Assembly: GCF_000165795.1 (NCBI RefSeq)
Contig: NZ_CM001022.1
Coordinates: 2,203,812-2,267,811 of the forward strand
DNA length: 64,000 nucleotides
Direction of reading: 5' to 3'
Source: Aminomonas paucivorans DSM 12260
GTDB taxonomy: Bacteria > Synergistota > Synergistia > Synergistales > Synergistaceae
Under the pieces are notes generated by a model, which did not search any database, had not been told where the DNA came from, and worked only from the letters and a program-made list of their open reading frames with translations. The stretch's first letter is position 1, and each line of letters begins with the position of its first letter. Positions 39,230 to 42,987 of the stretch are shown here, piece after piece. The translations under genes were made by a program, and so were the position numbers.

Positions 39230-39685
39230 ATGGACAATCCCCTGCTGACCCAAAGGGAGATCGAAGCCCGGATCCTGGAGCCCGTCCTGGAGGTCCTGAC
39301 GGAACGGCTGGGACGGGAGGAGGCCCGGGCCCTTCTGGGCAAGGCACTCTGCGCCCAGTCCCGCCGCCAGGGAGCGAAGACCGCCCAGGACCTGGGGAGG
39401 AACGACCTGGAGGCCTTCAAGTCCGTCGTGGCCCGCTGGAACGAGGGCGGGGCGCTGGAACTCTCCTTCCGGAGGGACGACCCCGAAGCCCTGGAGTTCG
39501 ACGTGACGCGGTGCGCCTTCGCAGAGGCCTACGAGCGCCTGGGTCTGGAGGATCTGGGAACGGTCCTCTCCTGCCACCGAGACTTCGCCTTCCTGGAGGG
39601 GTTCAACCCCGACCTGGTCCTGGAGCGGGAGACCACCCTCATGGAGGGGGGCGCGTGCTGTCCCTTCCGCTACCGCCGTCGTTAG
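39230..39685 (+). CDS. L-2-amino-thiazoline-4-carboxylate hydrolase-family protein
   Basis: A 151-aa cytosolic protein of the ATC hydrolase family (PF14196). The pattern is clear: EFDVTRCAFAEAYERLGLEDLG near residue 85, then LSCHRDFAFLEGFNPDL and the C-terminal TTLMEGGACCPFRYRR with the family's Cys/Phe-Arg-Tyr ending. ATC hydrolase opens a thiazoline ring to N-carbamoylcysteine; many family members have unknown substrates. GGGAGG precedes the ATG at 39230. It lies 78 bases after the NSS carrier gene, behind a hairpin. Confidence 0.82.
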   Translation: MDNPLLTQREIEARILEPVLEVLTERLGREEARALLGKALCAQSRRQGAKTAQDLGRNDLEAFKSVVARWNEGGALELSFRRDDPEALEFDVTRCAFAEAYERLGLEDLGTVLSCHRDFAFLEGFNPDLVLERETTLMEGGACCPFRYRRR

Positions 39686-39781
39686 GGAACGGTCAACCCC
39701 CCTTTGTCCCCATCCGATACTAGAAGCAGGACGAGCGGGGGCAGCCGGAACGGCGCGACCCCGGCGGAGGGGGGTGGACCC

Positions 39782-40156
39782 ATGGACCGGAAGGTGGAAC
39801 CCGTGGAGGCGACGAAGGCCGTCGAGCCCATTCGGGCGCGGCGCATTCTGCCCAAGGGATCGAAGGGGGAGGACGAACCGCCCCGGAAGAAGTGGAAGGA
39901 CGTGCTTCGGGAGAACCTGGATGAGGGACAGGAGGAAGCCTCGGACCAGAGGGAGCGGGATCGCTACGAGGCCCACGAGGATCCCCAACCACCCCGCCCC
40001 TCCGGGGAACCCCCCAAGGAGTGGCGCCCGGAGCCGGTGGACCCGGCCCAGCGGCAGGCCCTCCTGCAGAACCTGAAGGAAAACCCGGAGACCCTGCTGG
40101 AGATCCACCGGTTCACCCGGGACCCCCAAGGGCGCCTTCTGGACTCCAAGGGTTAG
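39782..40156 (+). CDS. Unknown highly charged 124-aa protein
   Basis: No family was recognised. The sequence is hydrophilic and rich in Glu, Arg and Pro (for example PPRKKWKDVLRENLDEG) without membrane segments or signal peptide. The last 40 residues (PAQRQALLQNLKENPETLLE) look helical. The ATG at 39782 is preceded by GGAGGGGGGT. Low-complexity composition lowers confidence. Confidence 0.55.
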   Translation: MDRKVEPVEATKAVEPIRARRILPKGSKGEDEPPRKKWKDVLRENLDEGQEEASDQRERDRYEAHEDPQPPRPSGEPPKEWRPEPVDPAQRQALLQNLKENPETLLEIHRFTRDPQGRLLDSKG

Positions 40157-40202
40157 CAGTGTCACGCTTTGACGGCCACATCACGAAAATGACAACCAAT
40201 AG

Positions 40203-40231
40203 TTGACTTTTAGATGTCTGCCTGTTATCCT
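40203..40231 (+). promoter_or_regulatory. Promoter of the orphan 49-aa gene
   Basis: TTGACT (40203-40208), exactly 17 bases, TATCCT (40226-40231), in locally A+T-rich DNA, about 47 bases before the start codon. Confidence 0.7.
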
Positions 40232-40277
40232 TCACCCAGTGACTCCCGGCAAGGGGGTCCCCAAGGAGGCGAAGGAC

Positions 40278-40427
40278 ATGGCGATCTTCCGGCGTTGGGC
40301 CCAGTCCCTGGGATGGAGGCGGATCTCCCCGGCCGAGGTGGCTCGGCTCTGCGACGGGGACCGGTTCGGAGGTGACGCCCGCAGTCGGGTGACCCTCCGG
40401 GACCTTCTGGAAACCCGACCCTCCTGA
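40278..40427 (+). CDS. Unknown 49-aa basic protein with its own promoter and terminator
   Basis: A short gene starting MAIFRRWAQSLGWRRISP and ending LRDLLETRPS. It is basic and soluble, and no family was recognised; the middle (PAEVARLCDGDRFGG) could form a small helix-turn unit. Support comes from signals: a consensus-like promoter 47 bases upstream, AAGGAGG seven bases before the ATG, and a strong intrinsic terminator 25 bases after the stop. It is a complete monocistronic unit and could also be a small regulatory RNA with a dual role. Confidence 0.68.
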   Translation: MAIFRRWAQSLGWRRISPAEVARLCDGDRFGGDARSRVTLRDLLETRPS

Positions 40428-40451
40428 CCTCCTCGTCGACGCAAATCGTTT

Positions 40452-40489
40452 CGCAAAGCCCCTTCCCCGTGAAGGGGCTTTGCGCTTTT
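40452..40489 (+). terminator. Intrinsic terminator of the 49-aa gene
   Basis: A perfect 14-bp stem (40452-40465 with 40471-40484) with a five-base loop is followed by C and four T residues. Confidence 0.88.
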
Positions 40490-40593
40490 CCCACCCCCGC
40501 GCCTCTCTCCTCCCCCCAACGGCTCCGATGAGAGTAGAATCGACCCCGACATTCCGACGCCTCCTTCCGGAGGAGCCCGCAAAGGGCATGAAG

Positions 40594-40625
40594 AAAGGGC
40601 GGCCCGGTCTCCCGGGCCGCCCTTT
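40594..40625 (-). terminator. Terminator of the buk-ptb-iorAB operon
   Basis: AAAGGGCGGCCCGG (40594-40607) pairs perfectly with 40612-40625 around TCTC. On the minus strand it follows the iorB stop by 18 bases and ends in CCCTTTCTTC. It could act on both strands. Confidence 0.75.
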
Positions 40626-40643
40626 CTGGTCTATCGGTTCCCC

Positions 40644-41222
40644 CTACAGGGCCATCCCCGCCCGCAGGGCCTTCACGTTGAGGTCGAAGAGCTTCGGAGG
40701 CACGATGCCCCGGAGCACCTCCGTCCAGTCCAGGGAGTCCAGCCCCATGGCCTTGATGAGAGCCCCCAGAAGCACCACGTTCTGGGCCTTGATGTTCCCC
40801 AGCTCCTCGGCGATGCGCCCGGCGTTGAAGATCTTCACGTTCTGTACCGTCTCCCGGAGCCGCTCGTTGAGCCCCTGGGGGTAGACGGCACTGCCCAGCA
40901 ACACCGGGAGGGAGTAGATCTCGTAGTCGTTCACCACCAGGGCTCCGGAGGGCTTGAGGTGGTCGATCCACCGGGCCGCCTCCACCTTCTCGAAGGCCAC
41001 CAGCACATCCGCCTCGCCGGGGGAGATCACCGGAGAGGCCACCTGGTCTCCGTAACGCACGTGGGTGCTCACGCTCCCCCCCCGTTGGGCCATGCCGTGG
41101 ATCTCCGACATCTTCACGTCGTACCCCATCTGCATGAGCCCCTCGGAGAGGATCTTGGAGGCCAGGATGGTACCCTGTCCCCCTACTCCCACCAGGAGGA
41201 TGCTCTTCGTCTCCCTACTCAT
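40644..41222 (-). CDS. iorB: Indolepyruvate:ferredoxin oxidoreductase, beta subunit
   Basis: A 192-aa gamma/beta-type subunit of the 2-oxoacid:ferredoxin oxidoreductase family. It starts with the ILLVGVGGQGTILASKIL nucleotide-like motif and has SEIHGMAQRGGSVSTHVRYG near residue 40, both diagnostic of IorB. It overlaps the end of iorA by eight bases, giving tight translational coupling. With IorA it oxidatively decarboxylates aryl pyruvates to acyl-CoA and reduced ferredoxin. Confidence 0.93.
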   Translation of the reverse strand: MSRETKSILLVGVGGQGTILASKILSEGLMQMGYDVKMSEIHGMAQRGGSVSTHVRYGDQVASPVISPGEADVLVAFEKVEAARWIDHLKPSGALVVNDYEIYSLPVLLGSAVYPQGLNERLRETVQNVKIFNAGRIAEELGNIKAQNVVLLGALIKAMGLDSLDWTEVLRGIVPPKLFDLNVKALRAGMAL

Positions 41223-42987
41223 GGACCTCGCCCTCCCTCGAGATGGCCTGCTTGGGGCAAAGCTGCATACAGAGGCCGCAGCCGTTGCACTGGGCCGGAT
41301 CGATGACGATGACCCCGTCCTTCATGGCGATGCCGGGACAGCCGGGACGCAGGCAGGACTTGCACTTCACGCACGTGCTCTGGTCCACGACGCAGCGCAC
41401 CCCGGCGCGCTTCTTCTGCACGTCCTTGATGAGGGCGCAGGGCTGCCGGGTGATGATGACGAAGGGCTCCGGGCAGGCCTGGGCGGCCTTCACCGCCTCG
41501 TCGCAGGCCTTCAGGTCGTAGGGGTCCAGCACCACCAGATTCTCCCGCTTCACCCCGCAGGAGATGCAGAGGGACTCCAGGTCCAGGGCCACCGTCTCCT
41601 CCCCCATGAGGGTGCGCCCCGTCCCGGGATTCTCCTGGTGTCCCGTCATGGCGGTGATGCGGTTGTCCACGATGATCAGGGCCAGGGGGACCTTGTTGAA
41701 CACCGAGTCGATGAGCCCGGTGATGCCGGAGTGGAAGAAGGTGGAGTCCCCGATGACCCCGAAGACCTTGCCGGTTCGCCCGGCGATCTGCTGGGTCTTC
41801 TGGAAGCCCACCCCCGCGGAGACGGAGGCGCCCATGCAGATCACCGTGTCCCCCACGTTCAGCGGAGCCAGGGACCCCAGGGTGTAGCAGCCGATGTCGC
41901 TGCTCACCACCTTGTCCTTCACCTTGCTCAGGGCGAAGAAGATGCCCCGGTGGGGGCACCCGGCGCAGAGCACCGGAGGCCGGGGGGGGATGGGCACGTC
42001 CAGGCGCAGGGGTTCCTCCTGGTCGTGGGCCAGGAAGGCCTTGCGCACCACCGAGGGAGAAAGCTCGTCCACCCCGGGCAGCAGGGCCCGGCCCACGCAG
42101 GGGATGCCCAGCTCCTTGACCTTGGACTCCAGGTAGGGCTCGTTCTCCTCCACCACGTAGACCTTGTCCACGCAGGCGGCGAAGGCCCGGATCATCTCGT
42201 CGGGCAGGGGGAAGGAGAAGCCGATCTTCAGGTAGCTGGCTCCGTCCCCGAAGACCTCCCGGGCGTGCTGGTAGCCGATGCCGCTGGTGATGATCCCGAC
42301 CCGCTTGTCTCCCCACTCGATGCGGTTGAAGGGACAGCGGTTGGAGTAGGCCCGGAGGGCCTCCAGGCGATCCTCCACCAGGCGGTGGCGCACCTTCGCC
42401 GCCGCGGGGGTCATGAGGTTCTTGGAGGTGTTCCGGACGTACTCCCGCACGGGGACTTCCTGGCGGTCTCCCAGCTCCACCACTCCCTTGCTGTGGCAGA
42501 TGCGGGTGGTGACCCGGAAGAGCACGGGGGTGTCGAAGCGCTCCGAAACCTCGAAGGCCTCCTTGATGAAGTCCAGACACTCCTGGCTGTCTGCGGGTTC
42601 GAACATGGGGACCTTGGCGTGGGGGGCGTACCACCGGTTGTCCTGTTCGTTCTGGGAGCTGAACAGCCCGGGGTCGTCGGCGGAGACCAGCACGAAGCCC
42701 CCGTTGACCCCGATGTAGGCCATGGTGAACAGGGGATCCGCCGCCACGTTGACCCCCACGTGCTTCATGGCCGCCAGGGACCGGGCCCCGGCGATGGAGG
42801 CCCCGGAGGCCACCTCCACGGCCACCTTTTCGTTGGGGGCCCACTCGGAGTAGACCTCTTTGTACTGGGCCATGTTCTCCAGGATCTCCGTGCTGGGCGT
42901 GCCCGGGTAGGCCGCCGCCACGTGGAGCCCCGCCTCCCAGGCTCCCCGGGCGATGGCCTCGTTGCCCGTCAGGATCTTCTTCGTCAA
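41215..42987 (-). CDS. iorA: Indolepyruvate:ferredoxin oxidoreductase, alpha subunit
   Basis: A 590-aa fusion of pyrimidine- and core-TPP-binding domains with a C-terminal 2[4Fe-4S] ferredoxin domain. The N-terminal region has GNEAIARGAWEAGLHVAAAY. The TPP motif is GDSTFFHSGITGLIDSV near residue 420, preceded by CAGCPHRGIFFAL. Cluster ligands are CVKCKSCLRPGCPG and CNGCGLCMQLCP at the end. It starts at TTG 42985-42987 with AAGGAGG eight bases upstream. It converts indolepyruvate, phenylpyruvate or related transamination products with CoA to aryl-acetyl-CoA, CO2 and reduced ferredoxin. Confidence 0.93.
   Translation of the reverse strand: MTKKILTGNEAIARGAWEAGLHVAAAYPGTPSTEILENMAQYKEVYSEWAPNEKVAVEVASGASIAGARSLAAMKHVGVNVAADPLFTMAYIGVNGGFVLVSADDPGLFSSQNEQDNRWYAPHAKVPMFEPADSQECLDFIKEAFEVSERFDTPVLFRVTTRICHSKGVVELGDRQEVPVREYVRNTSKNLMTPAAAKVRHRLVEDRLEALRAYSNRCPFNRIEWGDKRVGIITSGIGYQHAREVFGDGASYLKIGFSFPLPDEMIRAFAACVDKVYVVEENEPYLESKVKELGIPCVGRALLPGVDELSPSVVRKAFLAHDQEEPLRLDVPIPPRPPVLCAGCPHRGIFFALSKVKDKVVSSDIGCYTLGSLAPLNVGDTVICMGASVSAGVGFQKTQQIAGRTGKVFGVIGDSTFFHSGITGLIDSVFNKVPLALIIVDNRITAMTGHQENPGTGRTLMGEETVALDLESLCISCGVKRENLVVLDPYDLKACDEAVKAAQACPEPFVIITRQPCALIKDVQKKRAGVRCVVDQSTCVKCKSCLRPGCPGIAMKDGVIVIDPAQCNGCGLCMQLCPKQAISREGEVHE

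What the first reader, a model, noticed from the sequence alone, without database searches (positions are those of the whole stretch)
40203..40489. Orphan transcription unit for a 49-aa basic protein
A near-consensus promoter with 17-base spacing, AAGGAGG, a 49-codon gene and a perfect 14-bp terminator are packed into 290 bases. All signals are strong, yet the protein matches no family I know. It could be a small regulator, a toxin-like peptide, or a dual-function small RNA.
Basis: seen in the sequence. Interest (0 to 1): 0.6.

Follow-up and report, generated by a model that had tools for sequence, protein, structure and literature searches.

The report
New conserved small-protein gene family
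A 49-residue protein gene with its own promoter and terminator in an amino-acid-fermenting bacterium proves to be a real gene under selection, with five relatives in two other genera of the same phylum, but what the protein does is still unknown.

Summary
The sequence features are real: TTGACT-17-TATCCT with TGn before the -10, AAGGAGG eight bases before ATG 40278, a 49-codon ORF (40278-40427) and a perfect 14-pair hairpin followed by only four T. The gene is not an orphan. Pairwise searches miss its relatives, but synteny shows them: three genomes of genus g21 (one is Thermanaerovibrio acidaminovorans by exact length) carry a homologous 47-56-aa ORF at the same place, between the homologue of the upstream 124-aa ORF and the convergent iorB-like gene, with the same promoter layout. 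A profile then found two more relatives in genus g22. Held-out profiles rank the small ORF first in every locus tested. dN/dS is about 0.09-0.10, so selection acts on the protein. No Pfam, NCBIfam, PHROG, PADLOC or PDB sequence family fits. Six of 185 Synergistota genomes carry it. My best reading is a new, narrow family of basic, helical small proteins, probably a partner-binding regulator or adaptor. Protein-coding status is well supported; mechanism is inference. Toxin, leader-peptide and pure small-RNA readings are disfavoured.

The parts
40203..40231 (+). sigma-70-type promoter TTGACT-17-TATCCT with TGn before the -10
   Evidence: the same layout (TTGAC[AT], 17-18 nt, [TC]A[TC]CAT) lies upstream of the relatives in G170, G171, G172 and G009
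40263..40269 (+). Shine-Dalgarno AAGGAGG, 8 nt before the start codon
   Evidence: a spacer of 8 nt also in G170-G172 (sequences)
40278..40427 (+). gene for the 49-aa basic protein; conserved core L.D.DR...R..VT (P0001)
40452..40489 (+). intrinsic-terminator-like hairpin, 14 pairs, loop CCCGT, then C and TTTT
   Evidence: hairpins at the matching place in G170, G171, G172
39782..40156 (+). upstream 124-aa ORF of unknown family, conserved next to the small gene in G170-G172
40644..41222 (-). convergent iorB-like gene (name recalled from the sequence; the homology search supports conservation only)

Best explanation
It is a genuine, separately transcribed gene for a small cytoplasmic basic protein, the founding member here of a narrow Synergistota family with the core L-x-D-(G/A)-D-R-(several)-R-x-x-V-T-(L/V). 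The protein most likely works as a small regulator or adaptor: a short helical core with a fixed acidic patch (D.D) and arginines docks on one partner protein, and the less conserved N-terminal helix, amphipathic and basic in the g1 and g21 members, helps it bind a partner, nucleic acid or the membrane surface. Shown: anatomy, homology, synteny in four of six genomes, purifying selection on the protein. Inferred: expression, helicity, partner binding.
For: Same place and same signals in G170-G172. Held-out tests: the g21-only profile finds the window ORF as best of 917 frames (E 7.1e-4, next 0.78); the window protein alone finds the relative as best of 204 frames in each of three g21 loci (E 7.2e-4 to 2.7e-3) and of 217 frames in the G009 locus (E 0.0017); the g22-only profile finds the window ORF first (E 0.014). 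Pairwise scores of the window protein against the five relatives: z 5.9-9.1, 0-2 of 2000 shuffles as good. dN/dS 0.059/0.635 (G172/G171; changes by codon position 3, 2, 15) and 0.109/1.076 (G009/G010 core; 5, 3, 13). Two AlphaFold runs give helices only. Net charge is positive in all six.
Against: The structure models are low confidence (mean pLDDT 59.6 and 58.2), so helicity and docking are weakly based. No recurring partner gene: G009 has a GntR/FCD regulator upstream and a metallophosphoesterase downstream, unlike g1/g21. Only six members are known, and identity to the window protein is 29-37%. The N-terminal part is not conserved in g22. Nothing here tests expression.
Confidence: 0.5

Rival explanations
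1. Small DNA-binding autoregulator: the protein binds an operator over its own promoter and perhaps a few other sites.
For: G170 has a perfect 21-bp palindrome ATGATAACTGTGAGTTATCAT across spacer and -10, the only exact match in six genomes searched at up to 3 mismatches. The protein is basic, and its core is modelled as short helices.
Against: The palindrome is not kept in G171, G172 or the window, where mainly the -10 half remains. No helix-turn-helix family matches. At 49 aa it would need to dimerise.
Confidence: 0.15
2. Regulatory small RNA with a dispensable ORF, or a dual-function RNA.
For: Compact transcription unit with a strong terminator hairpin. The leader of G171, G172 and G009 forms a hairpin around the Shine-Dalgarno better than most shuffles (2, 5 and 1 of 200 as stable). 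One 40-base stretch has an 80% match on the antisense strand of a kpsF-like gene in the same genome and 88% in G019.
Against: Substitutions are mainly synonymous and the RNA sequence diverges while the protein core is kept. The window leader is not structured beyond shuffles (172 of 200 as stable). The kpsF match region is not shared by the g21 transcripts.
Confidence: 0.07
3. Toxin-like or membrane-active peptide.
For: Short, basic, with an N-terminal amphipathic stretch (hydrophobic moment 0.51-0.84 over residues 2-12 of the six).
Against: No antitoxin gene or antisense promoter seen; the promoter scan found no other site nearby. The most conserved part is a charged core, not a hydrophobic segment. 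Single copy: the other hits in G000 have E 0.16 and 0.48.
Confidence: 0.08
4. Chance ORF between two genes, with the promoter serving something else.
For: GC3 is below that of neighbours. Simple pairwise search gives no relative at E<=0.001 in 185 genomes other than itself.
Against: Held-out profile tests, synteny and dN/dS.
Confidence: 0.04

Closest known systems
Lineage-restricted bacterial small proteins (microproteins), as catalogued in smORF surveys such as PMC11364881, PMC11188072 and PMC11796252 (search listings and abstract openings seen only)
   Same: Short ORF with own RBS, purifying selection, narrow taxonomic range, no annotated domain.
   Different: This one has its own promoter and terminator conserved across genera. 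I did not check whether it is listed in any of these catalogues.
phrog_7737 (48-position phage family, unknown function)
   Same: Residues 18-32 of the G170 member align to profile positions 11-25 at E 0.012.
   Different: Only one of six members matches and only over 15 residues; not accepted as homology.
Pcc1 (PF09341)
   Same: One of six members matches weakly, E 0.091, 13.6 bits.
   Different: Below the curated cut-off of 20.9 bits and covers only part of the profile; rejected.

Membership tests
Conserved bacterial small-protein gene | Open frame with start and Shine-Dalgarno in several genomes | tested here: met
   Six of six frames open; Shine-Dalgarno seen upstream in the window, G170-G172, G009 and G010
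Conserved bacterial small-protein gene | Purifying selection at the protein level | tested here: met
   dN/dS about 0.09 and 0.10 in two close pairs
Conserved bacterial small-protein gene | Translated product detected | not testable with these tools
   Needs ribosome profiling or mass spectrometry
Any Pfam, NCBIfam, PHROG or PADLOC family | Match above the curated or a significant threshold | tested here: not met
   Window protein 0 families in Pfam, NCBIfam and PHROGs and PADLOC; all six members, no accepted match
Pcc1 (PF09341) | Score at or above the curated cut-off of 20.9 bits | tested here: not met
   13.6 bits, one of six members
Type I or II toxin | Adjacent antitoxin gene or antisense RNA | tested here: not met
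   Neighbours are the 124-aa ORF and a convergent iorB-like gene; no other promoter-like site in 39400-41400
Leader peptide with attenuator | A regulated gene downstream of the terminator on the same strand | tested here: not met
   The next gene is convergent
Rfam small RNA | Match at the gathering score | tested here: not met
   0 matches in the whole window

The most novel reading that the evidence does not exclude
A new family of small regulators whose production is also controlled at translation: in g21 and g22 a leader hairpin holds the Shine-Dalgarno and, in two g21 members, the start codon, so that the protein itself (or temperature) would switch its own synthesis.
Probability: 0.12. 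Interest if true: 0.5.

Novelty: new member of a known kind. Interest (0 to 1): 0.32.

Why it matters
It shows that an apparent orphan small gene in a poorly studied phylum is a conserved gene that pairwise search cannot link, and that shared position plus shared signals can. It gives a short list of residues (L24, D26, D28, R29, R35, V38, T39) and three genera for functional work. Any step beyond an ordinary new small-protein family is unproven.

Tried and rejected
Relatives outside the phylum: two genome-contig scans reported none, but this is not evidence of absence. The confirmation step (tblastn E<=1e-3) appears too strict for this family: the g21 relatives were not reported either, and the window protein alone did not reach them at E<=1 by pairwise search of those very genomes. 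Viral contigs, phages and plasmids: nothing, with the same limit on sensitivity.

More distant candidates not accepted: G098 C83 (E 6.8e-4, ORF cut by a contig end), G165 C86 (E 0.00135, in a phage-like stretch after an ATPase gene, judged by eye; searched in turn it found only itself, 1 of 185 genomes at E<=0.01, and nothing in phages), G176 C2 (E 0.02, not in the list). The G037 and G021/G022 hits were not followed further.

The kpsF antisense match is treated as chance: it is not shared by relatives. The CodY-box idea was checked against PMC9318921 (abstract and passages read): its Thermanaerovibrio consensus AATATT-N21-AAAATA does not resemble the palindrome. Structure search was not run because both models are low confidence. 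In one search the row labelled iorA was read in a wrong frame and is not used. In one search two relatives were read on the wrong strand and the script failed, so one search replaces it. Searches showed stretches on the wrong strand; one search replaces them. The G170 terminator stretch was misplaced; one search replaces it.

Full report
Where it is. The window is G000:C1:2203812-2267811 of a single-contig genome of 2,630,170 bases. G170 has 1,848,474 bases, exactly the published length of Thermanaerovibrio acidaminovorans (PMC3035242, passages read). That G171 and G172 are also Thermanaerovibrio is inference from their shared genus label.

Observation. The T-tract is short, and composition by itself does not single out this frame.

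Not an orphan. A six-frame search of all 185 held genomes of the phylum with the 49-aa protein found no convincing relative beyond itself (62 of 185 genomes have some match at E<=1, best non-self 0.0086). The neighbours were then used as anchors. The upstream 124-aa ORF has full-length matches in G172, G171 and G170 (E 1.8e-10, 7.0e-9, 1.6e-7), and the downstream convergent iorB-like gene is widespread (167 of 185 at E<=1e-10). In all three genomes the two anchors flank an intergenic stretch, and reading it showed a small ORF with the same core. The DNA alignment keeps TTGAC, the -10 region, GGAGG and parts of the coding core, while the rest diverges. A four-member profile then ranked G010 and G009 (genus g22) first among non-members (E 7.3e-4 and 1.3e-3); both are ORFs with Shine-Dalgarno sequences. 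The six-member profile matches 17 of 185 genomes at E<=0.1: the six members, which match by construction, and 11 others with best E 6.8e-4 that I do not accept. So the accepted range is 6 of 185 genomes: 1 of 1 in g1, 3 of 3 in g21, 2 of 5 in g22.

Independent tests. To avoid circularity I held members out. In every one of eleven runs the small ORF was the best of all open frames in the target stretch: g21 profile to window, E 7.1e-4 of 917 frames; window protein to L104, L105, L106, E 0.002, 7.2e-4, 0.0027 of 204 each, and to L147, E 0.0017 of 217; g21+window profile to L147, 2.7e-6; g21 profile to L147, 0.013; g22 profile to window 0.014, L104 0.042, L105 0.064, L106 0.028. The last group is weak one by one; together with rank they support homology. 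The L147 link (G009) has no synteny behind it.

Selection. G172 against G171: 20 differences over 46 codons, by codon position 3, 2 and 15; dS 0.635, dN 0.059. G009 against G010 over a 33-codon core: 5, 3, 13; dS 1.076, dN 0.109. This is the mark of a translated protein.

Signals. TTGAC[AT] with 17-18 nt to [TC]A[TC]C[AC]T lies 58-79 bases before the start codon in the window, G172, G171, G170 and G009; G010 could not be tested because its contig stretch begins 17 bases before the start codon. Hairpins follow the ORF in the window, G172, G171 (z -5.5, -6.8, -5.3) and G170 (z -2.4). Leader hairpins over the Shine-Dalgarno are better than most shuffles in G172, G171 and G009 (z -2.4, -2.6, -2.8) but not in the window (z +0.95) or G170 (z +0.2).

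Protein. pI 8.3-11.4 and net charge +0.5 to +5.7 in the six. Eight columns are invariant: M1, L24, D26, D28, R29, R35, V38, T39 in window numbering. AlphaFold gives a few helices at mean pLDDT about 59, too low for fold search. No sequence family fits.

Mechanism. The gene is followed by a terminator and then a convergent gene, so it is no leader peptide. The conserved charged core, lack of a hydrophobic segment and lack of a partner gene speak against a toxin. A small partner-binding regulator or adaptor is what remains most likely; that step is inference.

Novelty. No name for the family came up in the libraries used. Literature searches listed no paper on it by title or abstract opening; the papers' supplements and the small-protein catalogues themselves were not searched, so I do not claim it is unlisted. 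It is a new small family of a known kind.

Noticed in passing
L106/L109 (G170), G170:C1:407768-407788: Perfect 21-bp palindrome ATGATAACTGTGAGTTATCAT spans spacer and -10 of the small gene's promoter; no other exact copy in six genomes.
   Followed up: partly
L104 5103-5147, L126 1630-1675, L111 1638-1700: Leader hairpins that hold the Shine-Dalgarno of the relatives, absent in the window gene.
   Followed up: partly
window 39782-40156: A 124-aa highly charged ORF of no known family, conserved next to the small gene in g21 and with N-terminal matches in G017 and G018.
   Followed up: partly
window 40254-40293 and G000:C1:989551-989590: 40-base 80% match to the antisense strand of a kpsF-like gene (name recalled); 88% match in G019. 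Probably chance.
   Followed up: partly
L131 (G165:C86), 1450-1791: Small ORF with a similar LTPREIEIACDGDRA stretch right after an ATPase-like gene in a phage-like region; E 0.00135 to the family profile.
   Followed up: partly
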